Of a DNA stretch of 28,972 bases, positions 4,527 to 28,972 are shown one piece after another. Within the stretch, counting starts at the first letter, position 1, and each line of letters opens with the position of its first letter. The position numbers and the translations under genes were made by a program. The stretch lies in the IMG/VR virus record IMGVR_UViG_3300009008_000186, positions 1 to 28,972 of that record; one strand, 5' to 3'. The notes under the pieces were generated by a model. That model worked only from the letters and a program-made list of their open reading frames with translations. It made no database searches and was not told the DNA's origin. Source of the DNA: a virus.

Positions 4527-4772
4527 ATGACTGAAAACGACCTCAACGTCTCAGATCTTGTGAAGGCTCTAGAAACCTTCAATGCACCGGCAGCGCGTGA
4601 TGCTGCTGACCGGCTGCGCTTCTCGCTCCTGCGGGGGGACGACGTAAGTAAGGACGAGCTTCTTGTGCTCATCTCCACCTTGCGTAATACCCTCCACCGG
4701 ATGGTGGTCGCTCCGGCCCCTCGGAGTGGAATTGCCATCCGCTCCTACGACCCTCGGCCGGGCGCACGATAG
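4527..4772 (+). CDS. Small protein of unknown function upstream of the polymerase
   Basis: This 81-aa protein starts at ATG 4527, immediately after the terminator T-run, with no strong ribosome site (GGGAAAACC). It is helical in appearance (VSDLVKALETFNAPAARDAA; KDELLVLISTLRNTLHRMV) with a basic, Pro/Arg-rich tail. I do not recognise the family. Its stop (4770-4772) shares one base with the GTG start of the polymerase, so the two genes are probably translationally coupled and it may set the level of polymerase synthesis. Confidence 0.62.
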   Translation: MTENDLNVSDLVKALETFNAPAARDAADRLRFSLLRGDDVSKDELLVLISTLRNTLHRMVVAPAPRSGIAIRSYDPRPGAR

Positions 4773-7402
4773 TGACCTACGATCCCCGACAGTGCGGCGC
4801 ATGCTGCGACGAGTGTCCGCTGTCGCGGGATCGGCAGGGCCCCCCTGTTCCTCCAGAGACCCATCCCACAGCGCGCTTTGCGATTGTGGGTGAAGCTCCG
4901 GGGGGCCAGGAGGTCCGTCACAGTCGGCCCTTCGTTGGGCCGAGCGGCATCGAAGAGATGCGGCAGCTCTCGGCTCTAGGCTGGCGAAGGACGGACGCTC
5001 ACTGGACGAACGCGCTCCTCTGCCGGCCGCCAGGGACCGGCGACCTCAAGGGCTACCTCATGCAGCTCAAGAGCCGGAACCGACGCAGGAAGCGGAAGGG
5101 AGAGACCCCCTGGCGCTCTCCACTCGACTGCTGCCGACCTCGGCTCCAGGCTGAACTGAAGCCCTTTGACAAGGTGCTCACCCTTGGCGGGGCGGGAGCC
5201 AAGGCAGTCCTCGGAGGCAGCGGGGGCATTCTCGATGTCCGGGGGGGCCCGGTCGAGGCAGACGGCCGCAAGGTGCTCCCGACGCTTCACCCGTCCTTCG
5301 TCCTACGCGCTCCTCGGTGGAAGGCGGCGCTGCAGAGCGACCACGCCAAGGCCAAGCGCTTCTTTGAGGATCGCCTGACCTGGGCCGATCCCGTTACCAT
5401 CTACCGGCCCCCTGCGGGGAAGCTGGCCGAGTTTTTGGGCATCGTCCACGACGGCACAGCGTGGTGGGCTCCTCCGCATCGTGCAAAGACCTTGGCCTAT
5501 GACTACGAGACGGACTCCATCGACCCCATCATGTGCAAGGTCCGCTGCCTGGGCATCGGGACGCTGAAGCGGGCCATCGTCGTGCCCTTTCTCAGCATCG
5601 ACGGCACCCGGCGGTTCTACCAGCCGGCTGAGGAAAGGCAGGTGGAGGAGATCCTCCGCGCCTGGGCCACGGGCCCCGGCATCAAGGTCGCCCACAACGG
5701 AGGCTACTACGACACCCTGGTGATGCAGCAGCACCTGGGAGTGACACCGGCACCCCAACTCGACACCATCCTGGCCCATCGGCTCATCGAGGCGGAGCTG
5801 CCCCACAGCCTCGGCTACCTGGGCTCCACCCGCACTGATGTGATGGCGTGGAAAGCCGGCAAAGAAGCGACCACTGCCAGCAAGGAGATGGACCTCTGGC
5901 TCTACAACGCCCGAGATGTCGCTGTGACGGCCGCTATCGCGCCTCAGTTGCTCGCTGAAGTCCAGCGCAGGCACCTGGGTGGGGTAGGCCCCTCCGGCGA
6001 GCCTACGGGCCTCCTGGGGCTCGACCATGAGATCCAGCGCGTCTGTCGGACCATGCACATCAACGGGATGCGGATCGACCAGCAGCGTCGCGAGGAGTTC
6101 CTCGGTGTCTACGGAACGCGGTTGGAGAAGTGGCGCGGCAAGTGTGTCTCGATGGCCTCCGAGGTCCGGGCCATCTGGCGCAAGGAAAGCAAGAACCGAG
6201 AGCACCCCTTCAATCCGGCGAGCGGAGCCCAGGTCAGCCGCCTGCTCTATGAGGACTGGGATCTGGAGCCCGAGGAGTTCACCGAGAGCGGCGATCCCTC
6301 TGTGGCCGACAAGGCTCTACGCAAACTTCTCTCGGCTCCCCTAGAGCCCCACATGGTCCGCTTCATCCGAGCGCTCCGGCAGTTCAGGAAGGCGGCCAAG
6401 GTGGTCTCCACCTATCTGCTGCCTGCAGCCCCGCCTCCGCGAGGAGCGGTGAAGGGCACCAGGGCAGGCGACTACAAGGGGTGGTTCCGCACTCCTGGCG
6501 ACGATGGCCGGGTCCATGCTGACTGGAAGGCGCACACGGTGGTGACGGGGCGGCTGGGAAGCAGCCCCAACATGCAAAACATCCCCATCAAACTGCGCTC
6601 GATGTTCATCCCCGAGCCGGGACACATTCTGGTCTACGCCGATGCCGACCAGCTTGAGCTGAGGATCGCTGCAGCCCGGTGGGGAGCGGCCCGCTATATG
6701 GAGGCTTTTGAGGAAGGGCTCGACCCCCACCAGATCACCATGAACTCCGTCTTCGGAGACACGATGTGGACCTGGGACGGAGCGCCTCCGAAGCCCTACC
6801 GCTACAAGAAGTCGTGGCCGGGAGGCAAGATCAAGGGCCACTTCGATGACATGCGGGGGCTTGCGAAGTCGATCCAGTACGCATCGCAGTACGCAGCAAC
6901 CACCGAGACCGTGCATGATCTGGTGACTAGCGCCGAGGACAAGAACGGCGAGTTGGTCTACGCGGACCTGTCGGTCTCCGAGGTACGGGCCATGCAGGAG
7001 TCGTGGCTGGAGGGGTGCCCTGAGTTCCCTAAAGGGTGGGAAAAGGAGATGGCCTACTTCCGCAAGCATGGCTACGTCCGCGAGGAGGTGACCGGGCGAG
7101 TCCGAGACTGCCTCGATGGGGATGAGCTGAACACCATCGTGAACTTCCCGATCCAGGCCAGCGGGGCAGGCATCATCAACCACGCCACGCTAGCGATTGA
7201 CGCACAGTTCCCGCTGCAGTACGCCGGACGCTGCACAGGGCTGGTGAACCAGTGCCACGACGCCCTGACCCTGGAGGTGCCGATAGCAGACGCCGAGCGG
7301 TGCCGAGAGGCTCTCCAGGCGGCGATGACAGGCACCAGCCCGGCGCTGCCGGGAGTTGAGTTTAAGGCAGAGGCCGCAATCAAGGAGAGGTGGGAAGAAT
7401 GA
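4772..7402 (+). CDS. Uracil-DNA glycosylase / family A DNA polymerase fusion
   Basis: An 876-aa replicative polymerase. Residues 1-~205 are a family 4-like uracil-DNA glycosylase: Fe-S cysteines in CGACCDEC (8, 11/12, 15), GEAPGGQE at 40-47, NALLCRPPG, and TLHPS with His about 173. Residues ~235-400 are a 3'-5' exonuclease with intact ExoI DYE (244-246), ExoII HNGGYYD (308-314) and ExoIII YNARD (378-382). Residues ~420-876 are the PolA core: motif A DADQLELR (Asp624), motif B R695-K699-Y703, motif C QCHDALTLEV (Asp830). Tyr703 occupies the E. coli Pol I F762 position, as in T7 polymerase, and the usual HDE of motif C is HDA. Glycosylase-polymerase fusions are reported in phages such as SPO1 (recalled, not checked). 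The GTG start shares one base with the previous stop. Confidence 0.93.
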   Translation: MTYDPRQCGACCDECPLSRDRQGPPVPPETHPTARFAIVGEAPGGQEVRHSRPFVGPSGIEEMRQLSALGWRRTDAHWTNALLCRPPGTGDLKGYLMQLKSRNRRRKRKGETPWRSPLDCCRPRLQAELKPFDKVLTLGGAGAKAVLGGSGGILDVRGGPVEADGRKVLPTLHPSFVLRAPRWKAALQSDHAKAKRFFEDRLTWADPVTIYRPPAGKLAEFLGIVHDGTAWWAPPHRAKTLAYDYETDSIDPIMCKVRCLGIGTLKRAIVVPFLSIDGTRRFYQPAEERQVEEILRAWATGPGIKVAHNGGYYDTLVMQQHLGVTPAPQLDTILAHRLIEAELPHSLGYLGSTRTDVMAWKAGKEATTASKEMDLWLYNARDVAVTAAIAPQLLAEVQRRHLGGVGPSGEPTGLLGLDHEIQRVCRTMHINGMRIDQQRREEFLGVYGTRLEKWRGKCVSMASEVRAIWRKESKNREHPFNPASGAQVSRLLYEDWDLEPEEFTESGDPSVADKALRKLLSAPLEPHMVRFIRALRQFRKAAKVVSTYLLPAAPPPRGAVKGTRAGDYKGWFRTPGDDGRVHADWKAHTVVTGRLGSSPNMQNIPIKLRSMFIPEPGHILVYADADQLELRIAAARWGAARYMEAFEEGLDPHQITMNSVFGDTMWTWDGAPPKPYRYKKSWPGGKIKGHFDDMRGLAKSIQYASQYAATTETVHDLVTSAEDKNGELVYADLSVSEVRAMQESWLEGCPEFPKGWEKEMAYFRKHGYVREEVTGRVRDCLDGDELNTIVNFPIQASGAGIINHATLAIDAQFPLQYAGRCTGLVNQCHDALTLEVPIADAERCREALQAAMTGTSPALPGVEFKAEAAIKERWEE

Positions 7403-16643: not shown

Positions 16644-17645
16644 TTAGGGGCGATACGGGCGCTTGCGCCAATACGGTGGCCTCTCATCCAGGCGTGCTTC
16701 GATGATGAGGTCCTTCCAGATGACGCAGATCCGCGTACAGATATGGCAGTGGCAGTGAGGATTGAACCAGCCGACACCCCCCCGAGGCGTGTGGTGTGAG
16801 CGAAAGTAAGCGTGCTGGACCTCCCCCTTCCACGCCTCAGGGTGCCCAGACCAAGCGTGCCTGTGGGGATGAGTGTCGTGAATCTTCAGGATCTCTTGGC
16901 ACGCCTGACAGGGGCAGTCACGGCTCCACCAGAGGCTCCCCCCCTGTTGCTGGTGACCTGCAAAGAAGATGTCTGAGGCCGACCCACAAAGTTCCTCTTT
17001 GCGCCTCGCACGCTCGTCCTCAATCCACTTCTTTTTGGCCTCCTGGGCCTCATGTCGTCGGTGCTCCTCCGCTTGTTCGCGGGCCGTGGGCCACGGCGCA
17101 CCCTCTTGCACATAGGAGCGCAGAGAAGAGTGCCAATGCCGATAGAGGGCGCGCTCGGCCTTCCGCACAAGCTCCTGGGCCCGTGCCTTCTTTATCCCGA
17201 GCTGTTTGCCAACCCGCGCATAGGACTGGGGGAGACACCCGTCCCGCAGCCCGTAATAGGCGATGAGGGCCTCGCGGCTGCGTGCGTGGTCGAGTTGCTC
17301 TGCGCCCTCTCGTACCAGAGGAATCAGTTCGCGCTTCAGTACAGCCTCCTCAGCAGAGGGAACACCCTCACCGCCGGCCGCCTGGAGTTCAACCACTGCG
17401 TGGATCCCTACGCAGACCTCAGGATGTCCCCAGATCTCGCCAATCCCCACGCCGTGATAAGCGGCTACTTTGCGTGCCGTCTTTGTCCAGAGCCCGTTTG
17501 GCCGCTTGGGTGAACAGTGGTTCGCCTCCAAGGCGGAATAGTGCTGCGGGTCGATGCGCGCCGCACGGGCAAAAGCAGTGGGAGTTCGGTGTCCCAGGTC
17601 TGCGCGAAGCTGTATGAGCCGCTCAGGGCCATGGAGGACTACCAT
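16644..17645 (-). CDS. XRE HTH - sigma region 4-like HTH - Cys/His-rich protein
   Basis: This 333-aa protein starts at ATG 17645, overlapping the helicase stop by 7 bases. Residues ~8-75 form an XRE/lambda-repressor-like HTH (TAFARAARIDPQHYSALEA, then KVAAYHGVGIGEIWG). Residues ~118-172 closely resemble sigma-70 region 4: REALIAYYGLRDG, then YARVGKQLGIKKARAQELVRKAERAL. A charged helix (185-220) leads to a Cys/His-rich tail with CPCQAC (244-249) and HCHCHICTRIC (298-307), which could bind zinc. No sigma region 2 is present, so it is not a complete sigma factor. It probably acts as a transcription regulator that contacts both DNA and RNA polymerase. The combination is new to me. Confidence 0.68.
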   Translation of the reverse strand: MVVLHGPERLIQLRADLGHRTPTAFARAARIDPQHYSALEANHCSPKRPNGLWTKTARKVAAYHGVGIGEIWGHPEVCVGIHAVVELQAAGGEGVPSAEEAVLKRELIPLVREGAEQLDHARSREALIAYYGLRDGCLPQSYARVGKQLGIKKARAQELVRKAERALYRHWHSSLRSYVQEGAPWPTAREQAEEHRRHEAQEAKKKWIEDERARRKEELCGSASDIFFAGHQQQGGSLWWSRDCPCQACQEILKIHDTHPHRHAWSGHPEAWKGEVQHAYFRSHHTPRGGVGWFNPHCHCHICTRICVIWKDLIIEARLDERPPYWRKRPYRP

Positions 17646-18769
17646 CGCCGTGCAGGACGACGCTGGTGGTTGGTGGTGCGGTTGTAGTTGGCAGCGGCCT
17701 TGAAGCCCTTGGGGAAGACAGCCACGCATTCCTCAGCGAAGCGGGTGAGCGCCGTGTAGTGCCAGCGCCACTCGTCCTGCTCCATGAACATGCAGAAGTC
17801 AACGACGTAGACTCCGCCGGCCCACTGCGAGCCCTGCGCCTTGTGGCAGGTCACGGCGAAGCCGGTGTCGATGCGCAGCACGTTGCTCTCCAGCCAGTTG
17901 ACCGGCATGAAGATCTCCATGAGCCGCGCCTCTTCCAGCTTCACGCGCCACTCGTCGGGCTGCTTGCCCCAGCGCTGGAACTGGGCCTCACGCCAGCCCT
18001 CCAGGGCATCCGCCAGGGCGGCTCCGTCACCGCGCTGGCGCTCCCACCGGGCCTGCTCCTCGATGTCCTTGCGGACATGCGAGCGCAGCGCTCCCCGGTA
18101 GCGGGGCTCGGCTGCCAGCCAGGAGCTGTCGAGGACAGCACCTCGGACGCGGAGCGGCTCGCCCTTGCGGGTCTTGCGCTCGGTCTCGACCTCGACCACC
18201 CAGCCGCTGAAGTGGCCCCAGGTGGCGGGCTCGCAAGCGACGATGACGCCCTTCTCCGAGTTGATCATCCCGCCGCCACCCTGCATGGCGCAGACCTTCT
18301 CACCGAGCGCCGGGCCCTGGTCGCGGGCCGGGAGGCCGAGCTTGACGCGGACAGCGTCGTTGACCGGGGTGCGGATCTTGTGGCGACCGACGACCGCGAT
18401 GGCGTCGCCGTCGTGGCGCTCCATCTGGGCCAGGAAGAGCTTGGCGATGCCGTCAGCGTCCGCCCACTGAGCGCGGATGCCGTGGCGGCGCAGGAGGTCA
18501 GTGTCGCCGTTGTCGGCGTCCTTGAAGTCCTTGCGGGGGAGCACCTTGCGCTCGCGGATCTCGGTGGCGGCTCCCAGGATGGGCGAGCCCTCAGCCTGCC
18601 GGTAGACCGTGGTCAGCTTGACCGGGGCCCCCTCTAGGTCGAAGTACATACCGGGCTCCTCGTCATCCCGAGTGACCGGGGGAAGCTGGCAGTGGTCACC
18701 CACCGCGACGACCTGGGTGGTCTCAGGGAGCGCCTCCATGAAGTCTGCGCCGAGACCCTGGCCGACCAT
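17639..18769 (-). CDS. RecD-like superfamily 1 helicase, C-terminal part (after in-frame TAG)
   Basis: 376 codons in the same frame as the upstream part, beginning with an ATG directly after the TAG. Motifs: MVGQGLGADF (rest of motif II), VGDHCQLPPV (motif III, about 24-32), TVYRQ (motif IV, about 54-58), a VVGRHKIRTPVNDAV segment, TCHKAQGSQW (motif V, about 305-314) and YTALTRF (motif VI, about 337-343), all typical of RecD2/Dda-type 5'-3' helicases. Without the Walker A part it cannot hydrolyse ATP alone. It could act only if the stop is read through or if two polypeptides reassemble. A start at the TAGATG junction by reinitiation is possible although the ribosome site is poor. Confidence 0.82.
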   Translation of the reverse strand: MVGQGLGADFMEALPETTQVVAVGDHCQLPPVTRDDEEPGMYFDLEGAPVKLTTVYRQAEGSPILGAATEIRERKVLPRKDFKDADNGDTDLLRRHGIRAQWADADGIAKLFLAQMERHDGDAIAVVGRHKIRTPVNDAVRVKLGLPARDQGPALGEKVCAMQGGGGMINSEKGVIVACEPATWGHFSGWVVEVETERKTRKGEPLRVRGAVLDSSWLAAEPRYRGALRSHVRKDIEEQARWERQRGDGAALADALEGWREAQFQRWGKQPDEWRVKLEEARLMEIFMPVNWLESNVLRIDTGFAVTCHKAQGSQWAGGVYVVDFCMFMEQDEWRWHYTALTRFAEECVAVFPKGFKAAANYNRTTNHQRRPARRW

Positions 18770-19288
18770 CTACTGCTCGTCGGCCACCACGATACGACCC
18801 ACTTTGTCGTTGGGCTTGTCGCGTCGGTTGAAGAGCAGCTCAGGCTCGTTCTCTATGAGGACTGCTAGCTCTGCGTCGAACTCCTCCTGAGTGACGAGGC
18901 CGTCTGCAAGGCGCTGCTTCAGCTCCTCCAGCTCTTCGCTCTCCTGGGCACCCGAGTAGGTGATCTGGTGCATCGTGAATCCCACCTCGATGCCGGTGGC
19001 TTCCTTGGCGCGGGTCAACGCCATGTGCGTCGGAGCAGCCAGAGTCGTGGTCAGTCCGCAGCAGCGCAGGATCTTGAGAAGGAACTCCAGGGTGGTGGTC
19101 TTGCCGGTGCCGGCAGCACCGACGAGCCGGGTGATCTTCTCACCGGCTGCGAGGTCCGCCAGGATGATCGCAAGAAGCTCCCGCTTCTCGCCGTCAGGCT
19201 CAAAGGGGAGGTCCAGAAGAGGTTGGATGGGAGTGCCGTCGCGCAGCATCTGCGCCCACGCACGGAGGTTGGTGGGAAGTTCGGTCAT
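18770..19288 (-). CDS. RecD-like helicase, N-terminal part ending at in-frame TAG
   Basis: This 172-aa product starts at ATG 19288 with GGAGAG upstream. Walker A VGAAGTGKTTT is at 56-66, a second motif APTHMA (motif Ia) follows, then a charged helical insert. It ends in GRIVVADEQ and the stop TAG (18772-18770). The next in-frame codons read MVGQ. RecD-family motif II normally reads DExSMV, so the stop sits exactly where Ser is expected; TCG to TAG is one base change. The frame is otherwise unbroken. Options: nonsense mutation, sequencing error, suppression, or a true split helicase. TAG ends many other genes here, so it is not globally recoded. Confidence 0.82.
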   Translation of the reverse strand: MTELPTNLRAWAQMLRDGTPIQPLLDLPFEPDGEKRELLAIILADLAAGEKITRLVGAAGTGKTTTLEFLLKILRCCGLTTTLAAPTHMALTRAKEATGIEVGFTMHQITYSGAQESEELEELKQRLADGLVTQEEFDAELAVLIENEPELLFNRRDKPNDKVGRIVVADEQ

Positions 19289-19366: not shown

Positions 19367-19710
19367 ACACTCTGCTGTCGAAAGTTCAGAAGGCGGGTCT
19401 GCATGTCGCCTGGAGCCGCTGCCTGCACGGCTTCCCTGGTGGTGGCCGAGAAGGCCCTCCACAGCCTCTCGTCGCCCAGGAGCAGTCCTACCAGGGTCTC
19501 CGCTTCCTGGCGAGTCGAGAGGGCCTCCAGAGGCAGCTTGAGGCCTGTGGCAACATGGCTGATGTCCCAGCCGGCTCCCAGACGAGGGACGGACCCTCCA
19601 GGCACGATGGTGGGGTGGAGGGCCAGGGGCCCCGACTGGTGCCCTCGGACGCTCACGCTACCCCCCACGTCGAGGGGCAGCGTCAGGGTCACTTTGCGGA
19701 AGGCGCTCAC
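19354..19710 (-). CDS. Protein of unknown function between ArdC and helicase
   Basis: This 118-aa protein overlaps the ArdC stop by 4 bases. The N-terminal half is beta-rich (FRKVTLTLPLDVGGSVSVRGHQSGPLALHPTI), the C-terminal half helical (LPLEALSTRQEAETLVGLLLGDERLWRAFSATTREAV). No family recognised. Translational coupling to the ArdC-like gene suggests a linked role in the same operon. Confidence 0.6.
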   Translation of the reverse strand: MSAFRKVTLTLPLDVGGSVSVRGHQSGPLALHPTIVPGGSVPRLGAGWDISHVATGLKLPLEALSTRQEAETLVGLLLGDERLWRAFSATTREAVQAAAPGDMQTRLLNFRQQSVCIK

Positions 19711-20909
19711 GCGGCCTCCGCCACATCGTCGGCCTCGGCGGAGGTGCTCTCAGGCAAGAGGAGCCCTACCGCCTCGCGGGACATCCGAGCGGCCGTGTGA
19801 ATCGAGTACTTGTCCTGCTCGATGCGCTTGATCCAGCTTTGGATGTAGCTCGCATGGTCCTCACGCAGTTCGGAGTGAATCCCGAGTGCGTGGCAGAGGC
19901 TGGCCGAGCCAATCTCTGCGATCAACTCCTCAAAGGCGTAAGCCTCCGAGCCGAAGCGGTTGCCGAGCTGTCGGTTGAGCACCTTGGCGTGGCCGGTGGC
20001 ATGCGTCATCTCATGCAGGAGCGTGGCGCAGTAACGGTTGAGGCCCTGCTCCGCGCTCTTCGCAGTGAACTGCTCGACGGGGGGCATCCAGATCTCATGG
20101 GTGGCTGAACTGTAGCAGGCACGGTTGCCGGCGTTGCTCAGGGTGCAGCCGGTGGCCTCAGCGAACTGAGCCCAGACTGCAGCCACCGCCGGGTAGGCCT
20201 CTGCGACCTCGACCGGGATGCCGAGGGCGGCAGGGTCCTTCACGCGGCGAAGCGAGACTGTCATGGTCTTGGGCTGTGCAGCCTTCGGGTCCGGTAGGCT
20301 GTCGCACTGGCTCCAGTTGAAGACGCTGTAGACCCGGCAGGACGGAACGCTCTTGCGCGTCAGGTCGCCCTTGGCGATCCTCGCCTTGCTGGGCTTGCGT
20401 ATCACCTTGCCGCTCTTGTCGGTGTAGGAGACGAAGAAGCTCCAGAAGAAAACCGGAGTCCCTTCCTCACCCTTCCGCACACCAGGGCACGGCGCGTCAC
20501 CGAGAGGAGCGTCGCCCTCGCCGGCATACGTCCATCCCCAGCCGCCCACCACGTTCCCCTGCTTGTCCTCCTTCGTCCGCTCAGGCTCGTAGCCCAGCTT
20601 CAGGAGGTTGGCAGTGGCAAGCTTCTGCGCCTGCTTGTACGTCGTCCAGGCGAAGCTGTCGTAGGAGCAGGCGCTGGCCGTCGCATCGAGGAACCAGGGG
20701 TTGAGGCCGTTGTAGCCGCGACCGCTGGTCCCGTTGTAATGGCCGGTGGTCTGGACCGTGATGGTCTCAGTGTCGTACTCGACGGTGCCCCCAGACGCCC
20801 ACGGCTTGTGCCAGGGCAGGGGAGTACCGCTCTCGTCGGACTCGCGGAGCATGGCCGCGATGCGGTCTGCAATCTCTTGAATGCTGTCTCTCTTGGTCTT
20901 GTTGGTCAT
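19707..20909 (-). CDS. ArdC-like antirestriction protein (ssDNA-binding domain plus zincin)
   Basis: A 400-aa protein with both parts of the ArdC family. The N-terminal domain (IADRIAAMLRESDESGTPLPWHKPW, then SGRGYNGLNPWFL, WTTYKQAQKL and VRKGEEGTPVFFW) is the ArdC/TraC single-stranded DNA-binding domain, here with an insert around residues 105-145. The C-terminal zincin-like peptidase carries LLHEMTHATGH (HExxH) and YAFEELIAEIG as third-ligand region; the active site looks complete. ArdC proteins travel with incoming DNA and protect it from host restriction in plasmids and phages. The start is ATG 20909, following CACACCTCC on the + strand (GGAGGTGTG in mRNA), a strong ribosome site. Confidence 0.9.
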   Translation of the reverse strand: MTNKTKRDSIQEIADRIAAMLRESDESGTPLPWHKPWASGGTVEYDTETITVQTTGHYNGTSGRGYNGLNPWFLDATASACSYDSFAWTTYKQAQKLATANLLKLGYEPERTKEDKQGNVVGGWGWTYAGEGDAPLGDAPCPGVRKGEEGTPVFFWSFFVSYTDKSGKVIRKPSKARIAKGDLTRKSVPSCRVYSVFNWSQCDSLPDPKAAQPKTMTVSLRRVKDPAALGIPVEVAEAYPAVAAVWAQFAEATGCTLSNAGNRACYSSATHEIWMPPVEQFTAKSAEQGLNRYCATLLHEMTHATGHAKVLNRQLGNRFGSEAYAFEELIAEIGSASLCHALGIHSELREDHASYIQSWIKRIEQDKYSIHTAARMSREAVGLLLPESTSAEADDVAEAA

Positions 20910-24914: not shown

Positions 24915-25421
24915 ATGACACGCGCTTGTTTCAACAACCCGGCTGCTGCCGCGACCTACGTCCTGGGTGACTGGGATCGCGCTGCAGAGAAGTGGACTGC
25001 AAAGTCCCTCACCCTTGTGTCCCGCAAGACCGACACCCGCTACACCTACCGCGTTTCTCGCCCCCCCGGCGAGGACGTAGAGCGGGCGTGGCTGGTGTCG
25101 TTGCTCACCGGGCCCAGCAACGAGAGTGACTTCACCTACATGGGCCTGCTCCGGCCTCAGGGCATCAACGCCCTGGTGGTAGCTGAGGACGCAGAGTGGC
25201 CCCTGGTCACCCTCCAGCACACCGCCAAGAGCGCCTTCCCGGCCGAATCGAAGCCCTGGAAGGCCTTCGCCTACTTCACCCGTCACCTGCTCCACCACGG
25301 CAACCTCCCCCCAGCCCTTGAGGTCTGGCATGAAGGTCGCTGTGGCCGGTGCGGACGCAAGCTGACCACCCCCCAGAGCGTAGAGACCGGCTTCGGCCCT
25401 GTCTGCGCTCAGAACCTCTAG
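24915..25421 (+). CDS. DUF6011-like protein with C-terminal zinc-type motif
   Basis: A 168-aa protein. The C-terminus GRCGRCGRKLTTPQSVETGFGPVCAQNL is the DUF6011 signature, with CGRC and a final Cys as likely zinc ligands. The N-terminal ~120 residues form an alpha/beta domain (RYTYRVSRPPGE, AWLVSLLTGP, WKAFAYFTRHLL). Such proteins are common in plasmids and phages; no activity is known to me. It is the first gene after a strong promoter. Confidence 0.75.
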   Translation: MTRACFNNPAAAATYVLGDWDRAAEKWTAKSLTLVSRKTDTRYTYRVSRPPGEDVERAWLVSLLTGPSNESDFTYMGLLRPQGINALVVAEDAEWPLVTLQHTAKSAFPAESKPWKAFAYFTRHLLHHGNLPPALEVWHEGRCGRCGRKLTTPQSVETGFGPVCAQNL

Positions 25422-27548: not shown

Positions 27549-27605
27549 AGGCCCGGTCGGCGCTTTCCCCCGCTAAAGGGGCGTCGGTCGGGCCTCTTCT
27601 TTTTC
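27549..27605 (+). terminator. Rho-independent terminator of the accessory operon
   Basis: AGGCCCG (27549-27555) pairs with CGGGCCT (27589-27595) around a smaller CCCC/GGGG stem (27567-27581), followed by TCTTCTTTTT (27595-27604). The 27468-27548 stretch before it has a weak CCGC-GCGG hairpin and no gene. The T-run reaches the stop codon of the convergent gene. Confidence 0.85.
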
Positions 27606-28972
27606 AGTAGTTCCCTGGCGCGGTAGCGCGGAACCACTCCCGATTCAAGCGCCCCTCTCCGCGTTTACGCGGAAGGTAGTGGAGCGGCCCCTCAGAGGCC
27701 CCTGGCAGAGCCTTCCAGGCTTTCTTCGCCGCTGGGGAGGTCGTTCCTCCGCCTAGACACTCATGGGGCACCAGCGCCGCTCCTGCGCGGTCTGCGGCCT
27801 CCAGAGCATGACGATACATCACGCGCCCGATGCCCTTGCCGCGCAGCCGGGGATCGAATAGCTCCGCACCAGGGACCACCCAGATGCCCTGGATGTGCGG
27901 CTGCTTCCTCCGCAGGCGCTCTAGGGCGTCGTAGCATTCACGCGGAGCTTGGTTCCACTCAAAGCCCTTCTCATTGACCCTGGTGGCGCGGAAGTAGGAC
28001 ATAAGGCCGTACTGAACGGGTGCCGGAGCACTCTCGTCGTGCATCTCGACTTTGAAGCCTTCAAAGGCATCTCCCGGTGGGTATGCCTCGATGCGAATGT
28101 CCGTCGAGCGCGGGACTCCGGCTGCGTAGAGATCTTCGCGGAGCTGCTCCATGTGCGGCGACACCCACGGCTTCGGCTTTGACGGGAACTTGTAGGCCCG
28201 GCGACCCCTTTCCTTGATCTTCAAGGCACCCCGAGCTTGGAGGGAGGGAAGCACACTCCGACCCTTCTTCACAAAGCGGTAGTCGAGAGCTTCACGCTCA
28301 GAGGGCGGAGTTCCCTTGGGGTTGTGCTCCCCACACGCCTCTGCGTCTCGGATTGTGGGGTCGTCCCACACCGGATACCACTCGACATCGTTGCGCCGCT
28401 GGCGCAGGTAGTGGGTCCACACTGCAGCAGCGGCGGGGCTAACACTCCCACGATCTGGCATCACGCCCGTACTCCCTGCCCACTCAAGTCCCAGGTCGTA
28501 GAGCATCGGGCCCCAGCCGGAGGGAGCTTCGCTGTTGGTGACGACCCAGGCCCCTCCACAAGAGACGTAACGGATCATCTGTAGGTGTCCTATGCGTTGG
28601 TCCCGGCCATCGCGCAGGGTGATAAAGACCGAGGGCCCCCGTTCGTCGGAGTAGATCTGCACACGCCACCCCGCTGGGAGATCGGTTGGCCCCTTTGCAG
28701 CACGTCGCCCTCGCCCAGCCGGACGATTCAAGCGTCCCTCTCCGCGCAGCCTATCCCAGACCTTCTGTGCCATCGGGCTCGTCCCGCTGCCACCGTAGTC
28801 CTTGGTGGAGATCATCTTGATCGGCTTGAACTTGTAGGCCTCGATCAAGGCCCTGGTCGAGACGTACATCAGGCTCCCCAGCCCTGTCCCCTGGTAGGGC
28901 TCACCCAACTGAGATCCGCTCACCACCCAGACGCTCTCACCCCCCTGACGCACCTCCTCGACTTGAACATGG
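27604..28972 (-). CDS. Repetitive GNAT-like protein, N-terminus outside window
   Basis: The frame is open to the right edge, so the 5' end is missing; GTG 28953 is only the first start codon inside the window. At least two GNAT acetyl-CoA-binding loops are visible, PYQGTGLGSLMY near the visible N-terminus and PRLRGKGIGRVMY near the C-terminus. Between them GWGPMLYDLGLEWA is a degenerate third copy. Each is followed by SPxAxxxW (GTSPMAQKVW, SVSPAAAAVW, TTSPAAKKAW). RGEGRLNR follows the first and third units and is repeated at DNA level (27641-27663, 28724-28746). Such multidomain proteins in phages may be co-injected effectors; acetyltransferase activity is inferred. Confidence 0.72.
   Translation of the reverse strand, partial: HVQVEEVRQGGESVWVVSGSQLGEPYQGTGLGSLMYVSTRALIEAYKFKPIKMISTKDYGGSGTSPMAQKVWDRLRGEGRLNRPAGRGRRAAKGPTDLPAGWRVQIYSDERGPSVFITLRDGRDQRIGHLQMIRYVSCGGAWVVTNSEAPSGWGPMLYDLGLEWAGSTGVMPDRGSVSPAAAAVWTHYLRQRRNDVEWYPVWDDPTIRDAEACGEHNPKGTPPSEREALDYRFVKKGRSVLPSLQARGALKIKERGRRAYKFPSKPKPWVSPHMEQLREDLYAAGVPRSTDIRIEAYPPGDAFEGFKVEMHDESAPAPVQYGLMSYFRATRVNEKGFEWNQAPRECYDALERLRRKQPHIQGIWVVPGAELFDPRLRGKGIGRVMYRHALEAADRAGAALVPHECLGGGTTSPAAKKAWKALPGASEGPLHYLPRKRGEGRLNREWFRATAPGNY

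What the first reader, a model, noticed from the sequence alone, without database searches (positions are those of the whole stretch)
18770..18772. Single in-frame TAG splits a RecD-like helicase inside Walker B
The two halves lie in one frame and carry the complete motif set, Walker A before the TAG and motifs III-VI after it. The stop replaces the Ser expected in DExSMV, and an ATG follows directly (TAGATG). TAG ends many other genes in this window, so it is not globally recoded. The options are a nonsense mutation, a base-call error, tRNA suppression, or a helicase naturally made as two chains by reinitiation.
Basis: partly seen in the sequence, partly recalled or inferred. Interest (0 to 1): 0.7.

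Follow-up and report, generated by a model that had tools for sequence, protein, structure and literature searches.

The report
Phage helicase gene with nonsense codon
A bacteriophage gene for a Dda/RecD2-like DNA helicase carries one premature stop codon at a highly conserved active-site position; every sign points to an ordinary single-base nonsense change (real or a sequencing error), not to a new way of making a helicase.

Summary
On the minus strand a 549-codon frame (17642-19288) encodes a Dda/RecD2-like SF1B helicase, interrupted once by TAG at 18770-18772, exactly where DExSMV has Ser. The whole read-through scores far better than either half (PHROG 325, E 6e-50 against 5e-11 and 5e-32). 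It folds as Dda/RecD2, with high confidence across the stop.

The position holds Ser in 156 and Ala in 5 of 161 relatives and a stop in none. About half of them use the Ser codon that is one substitution away from TAG. TAG terminates about 16 other predicted genes here, so it is not recoded, and no tRNA gene lies in the window.

The adjoining ATG is not evidence of reinitiation: it encodes the Met that is invariant in the motif. No good Shine-Dalgarno precedes it, whereas four other TAG ends in this window are TAGGAG, with the stop overlapping the next gene's ribosome site.

Both halves keep coding bias and conserved residues, so the lesion is recent or not real. It sits in the loop of a GGC-bearing inverted repeat, a context linked to Illumina errors. 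Most likely an ordinary recent nonsense substitution, then a consensus error. Suppression or a two-chain helicase is possible but unsupported. No close relative or reads were available.

The parts
17639..19288 (-). Dda/RecD2-like SF1B helicase gene, interrupted once (549 codons plus final TAG when read through)
   Evidence: PHROG 325 Dda-like helicase E 6.1e-50; AAA_30 and UvrD_C_2; fold matches 3upu Dda and 3e1s RecD2
18770..18772 (-). in-frame TAG at the Ser position of motif II (DEQ-stop-MVG)
   Evidence: column is Ser 156 / Ala 5 / stop 0 in 161 relatives
18773..19288 (-). upstream half: Q-motif region, Walker A, motif Ia, Walker B strand
   Evidence: PHROG 325 E 5.4e-11 for this half alone; start ATG 19288 has a GGAG-type ribosome site
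17639..18769 (-). downstream half: rest of motif II, motifs III-VI
   Evidence: PHROG 325 E 4.9e-32 for this half alone; GC3 0.89
19097..19120 (-). Walker A, GAAGTGKT
18764..18781 (-). motif II / Walker B, DEQ-stop-MV; the Met codon is the ATG after the stop
18677..18700 (-). motif III, GDHCQLPP
17822..17845 (-). motif HKAQGSQW
17741..17758 (-). motif VI, YTALTR
18759..18786 (.). perfect 8-bp inverted repeat TGGCCGAC / GTCGGCCA with the TAG in its 12-base loop; one of 9 such repeats in the window, whose loops cover 84 bases

Best explanation
The gene encodes a single-chain SF1B (Dda/RecD2-like) helicase of a phage replication and recombination module. In this particular genome one substitution has turned the motif II Ser codon into TAG. 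Translation stops after the Walker B strand. That leaves a fragment of about 172 residues with the P-loop but none of motifs III-VI, which should be inactive. The helicase is therefore lost, or made only at trace level by ordinary leakage. The lesion is young, because the rest of the frame has not decayed. Shown here: the helicase frame, the position of the stop, the absence of recoding in the window and the intact remainder. Inferred: that the change is real in the population, and that the fragment is inactive.
For: One TAG and no other lesion in a frame that is otherwise a complete helicase. The Ser/Ala column has no stop in 161 relatives, and 78 of 161 use the Ser codon one step from TAG. 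Conserved columns are kept equally on both sides (12/15 before, 25/28 after), and codon bias persists to the end. TAG terminates about 16 other predicted genes, and no tRNA gene is found. Distantly related contigs that share the SNF2, nuclease and UDG-PolA genes carry an intact helicase with DEASMVG. In-frame stops in bacterial genes are mostly short-lived polymorphisms, over-represented in the mobilome category (PMC7918605).
Against: There are no reads and no close relative, so a real mutation cannot be separated from a consensus error, nor can its frequency be known. A metagenomic consensus normally shows the majority allele, so a null allele in a conserved replication gene is somewhat unexpected unless the helicase is dispensable.
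Confidence: 0.52

Rival explanations
1. Consensus or base-call error in the metagenome assembly: the phage has an intact helicase.
For: Single record, a fragment. The stop lies in the loop of a perfect GGC-bearing 8-bp inverted repeat, a class whose loops cover only 84 of 28972 bases. Inverted repeats and GGC were reported as Illumina error triggers (Nakamura et al., as cited in PMC4787001 and PMC4872057). Everything else about the gene is intact.
Against: A consensus of several reads normally removes such errors. The hairpin association was noticed after the fact, PMC4787001 itself doubts the folding explanation, and the sequencing platform is not known.
Confidence: 0.26
2. Readthrough or suppression: the TAG is decoded as an amino acid (a Ser- or Gln-inserting suppressor tRNA of host or phage, or programmed readthrough), giving a full-length helicase, perhaps at a reduced, regulated level.
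For: Both halves remain intact. Some phages recode TAG (PMC11210395). The record is a fragment, so a suppressor tRNA could lie outside it.
Against: TAG ends about 16 other predicted genes, and none of those known by homology continues as the same protein. Only one in-frame TAG occurs. No tRNA or Rfam element is in the window. The RNA downstream of the stop folds no better than shuffles (z 0.67). The stop would sit in the catalytic motif, where only Ser or Ala is found.
Confidence: 0.13
3. Natural two-chain helicase: termination at TAG and reinitiation at the adjoining ATG give two polypeptides that reassemble around the Walker B strand.
For: Stop and start are directly adjacent, and reinitiation is efficient only at overlaps or very short distances (PMC10666635). 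The junction is a loop between a strand (166-169) and a helix (177-186) in the model.
Against: The ATG is just the Met that is invariant in the motif, so any nonsense change of the preceding Ser codon would create TAGATG. No good Shine-Dalgarno precedes it (duplex -4.9 kcal/mol, against -6.6 to -13 for many of the predicted starts). Genuine in-frame neighbours in this window use TAGGAG. No relative is split. Split chains would lack the motif II Ser.
Confidence: 0.07

Closest known systems
Phage T4 Dda helicase (SF1B; PDB 3upu) and PHROG 325 Dda-like helicases
   Same: All SF1B motifs in order; best PHROG match over the whole read-through; Foldseek E 5.5e-19, TM 0.69 by target
   Different: About 19% identical, with longer inserts before motif II and before motif V; interrupted by one TAG
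RecD2 helicase (Deinococcus; PDB 3e1s, 3gpl)
   Same: Best sequence match among solved structures (E 1.1e-15), with DEVSMMG at motif II
   Different: Lacks the long N-terminal region of RecD2; interrupted by TAG
In-frame nonsense codons in bacterial and mobile-element genes (PMC7918605)
   Same: Single stop in an otherwise intact conserved frame
   Different: Here no orthologue carries the stop, so purifying selection on the interrupted form cannot be tested
TAG-recoded phages (crAss-like, Lak; translation table 15; PMC11210395)
   Same: An in-frame TAG in a phage gene
   Different: Only one such TAG; TAG is in regular use as terminator; no suppressor tRNA found in the fragment

Membership tests
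Dda/RecD2-like SF1B helicase (read-through gene) | Walker A GxAGTGKT | tested here: met
   GAAGTGKT at 19097-19120
Dda/RecD2-like SF1B helicase (read-through gene) | Motif II DExSMV as encoded in one chain | tested here: not met
   Ser codon replaced by TAG; D, E, M and V all present. The intact gene would be a member; as written it is a broken member
Dda/RecD2-like SF1B helicase (read-through gene) | Motifs III (GDxxQLPP), HKxQGSQW and YTAxTR | tested here: met
Dda/RecD2-like SF1B helicase (read-through gene) | SF1B fold | tested here: met
   Model pLDDT 79, pTM 0.77, 94-97 across the stop; matches Dda and RecD2
Dda/RecD2-like SF1B helicase (read-through gene) | 5'-3' helicase activity | not testable with these tools
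   Needs purified protein
TAG-recoded phage | Many in-frame TAG codons, TAG avoided as terminator | tested here: not met
   TAG is the end of 17 of 44 predicted ORFs, this one included; one TAG inside a homologous frame
TAG-recoded phage | Suppressor tRNA (CUA) in the genome | tested here: inconclusive
   None in the 28972-base fragment; the rest of the genome is not held
Two-chain protein by termination-reinitiation | Overlap or near-zero distance between stop and start | tested here: met
   TAGATG, 0 nt, but the ATG is the conserved Met codon
Two-chain protein by termination-reinitiation | Ribosome-binding site for the second chain | tested here: not met
   Weak pairing (-4.9 kcal/mol), no AGGAG-type site
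Two-chain protein by termination-reinitiation | Split conserved in relatives | tested here: not met
   0 of 161 relatives have a stop at this position

The most novel reading that the evidence does not exclude
The amber codon is functional: either regulated readthrough gives a small amount of full-length helicase, or coupled reinitiation gives a two-chain helicase split inside the Walker B motif. The intact coding state of both halves is compatible with this.
Probability: 0.12. Interest if true: 0.55.

Novelty: new member of a known kind. Interest (0 to 1): 0.16.

Why it matters
As it stands it matters little: it is a caution that isolated in-frame stops in single metagenomic phage records usually reflect a recent nonsense change or a consensus error. 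If the TAG were decoded or used for reinitiation, it would be a rare case of translational control placed exactly on the catalytic motif of a replication helicase.

Tried and rejected
Close relatives were sought by protein pattern, DNA pattern and BLAST in phages, plasmids, viral contigs and genome contigs. Only distant homologues (about 25-31% identity) came back; the two loci are chance matches. Global TAG recoding was rejected. Two other places where coding-like sequence continues in frame after a TAG (22598, 25419) are ordinary neighbouring genes with their own AGGAG site and start, one after a DUF6011 C-terminus. A readthrough-promoting RNA structure after the stop was not found; the fold spanning the upstream side is only mildly better than shuffles (z -1.8). 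The reinitiation reading of TAGATG was rejected as independent evidence because Met is invariant there.

Full report
What was checked. The window is the whole of one virus record, a linear fragment of 28972 bases, 63% G+C. Reading the minus strand through 18770-18772 gives VVADEQ-TAG-MVGQGLG. The gene most likely starts at ATG 19288, which has a GGAG-type site, and ends at a TAG at 17639-17641, so the read-through protein is 549 residues with the stop at residue 173.

What the gene is. The read-through matches AAA_30 and UvrD_C_2 and PHROG 325, Dda-like helicase, at 6e-50. The halves alone give 5e-11 and 5e-32, so the two are parts of one protein. The best solved relative by sequence is RecD2. 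AlphaFold2 with 37 relatives gives a model with pLDDT 94-97 on both sides of residue 173, and the stop falls just after the Walker B strand (166-169) and before helix 177-186. Foldseek places the model with DSH9, T4 Dda and RecD2. A chain that ended at the TAG would have the P-loop but none of motifs III-VI.

How unusual the stop is among relatives. In 161 fetched relatives with a recognisable motif II the position is Ser in 156 and Ala in 5, and none has a stop. The commonest codon there (78 of 161) is a Ser codon one substitution away from TAG. The next residue, Met, is invariant in the alignment. A single nonsense substitution at this codon therefore always yields TAGATG, and the adjacency of stop and start carries no information about reinitiation.

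Is TAG read as sense here? Of 44 predicted gene ends, 17 are TAG, the one at issue included. A scan for coding-like sequence continuing in frame after any stop found three cases, all TAG. Only 18770 continues the same protein. The other two, 22598 and 25419, are followed by separate genes with their own ribosome sites. TAG is frequent partly because four gene ends (13952, 22598, 25419, 25800) are TAGGAG, in which the stop overlaps the Shine-Dalgarno of the next gene. The stop at 18770 lacks this arrangement, and the sequence before its ATG pairs weakly with the anti-Shine-Dalgarno. No tRNA and no Rfam element lies in the window, but the rest of the genome is not held.

Age of the lesion. Codon preference after the stop is as strong as before it. 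Columns conserved in at least 90% of relatives are kept in 12 of 15 cases before the stop and 25 of 28 after it. There is no second stop or frameshift. Either the change is young, or it is not in the phage at all, or the downstream part is still made. [quoted passage not shown]

Possible artefact. The TAG lies in the 12-base loop of a perfect 8-bp inverted repeat, TGGCCGAC/GTCGGCCA (18759-18786). There are nine such repeats with loops of 3-20 bases in the window, and their loops cover 84 bases. Inverted repeats and GGC have been reported as triggers of Illumina errors (cited in PMC4787001 and PMC4872057). This was noticed after the fact and the platform is unknown, but it raises the chance of a consensus error.

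Context. Two distant viral contigs (L170, 54 kb; L171, 18 kb) share the SNF2-like, nuclease and UDG-PolA genes (L170 also the AAA gene) and carry an intact RecD-like helicase on the same strand nearby. In those two the helicase begins with a cysteine-containing stretch resembling the DUF6011 end that the window encodes in a separate gene, 24915-25421 (by eye).

Verdict. An ordinary nonsense substitution in a phage helicase gene is most likely (about 0.5), then a consensus error (about 0.26). Suppression or readthrough (0.13) and a natural two-chain enzyme (0.07) are not excluded, but nothing beyond the open frame supports them. The probabilities are judgement, not computed. Only reads or close relatives can decide.

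Noticed in passing
window 13952, 22598, 25419, 25800: Four TAG gene ends are TAGGAG, in which the stop codon overlaps the Shine-Dalgarno of the next gene; this may explain why TAG is common as terminator here.
   Followed up: partly
window 4772-7402: DNA polymerase A with an N-terminal uracil-DNA glycosylase domain (PF03167) in one gene; L170 and L171 encode a homologue over the full length at about 30% identity.
   Followed up: partly
L170 12409-14106 and L171 (same contig as L019 7503-9296): RecD-like helicases with an N-terminal cysteine stretch resembling DUF6011 (by eye), whereas the window has DUF6011 in a separate small gene, 24915-25421.
   Followed up: no
window 18759-18786: Perfect 8-bp inverted repeat with GGC in the arms around the TAG; one of nine of its kind in the window.
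   Followed up: partly
window, helicase insert just before motif II (residues 140-166 of P0001): This insert matches the SHOCT helical hairpin (PF09851, 27-29 bits, at the family cut-off).
   Followed up: no
window 19707-20909: ArdC-like antirestriction protein (ArdcN plus MPTase-PolyVal) upstream of the helicase on the same strand.
   Followed up: no
window 27604-28971: 455-residue protein with weak acetyltransferase (GNAT) similarity near its C-terminus and, by eye, a similar stretch near its N-terminus.
   Followed up: no
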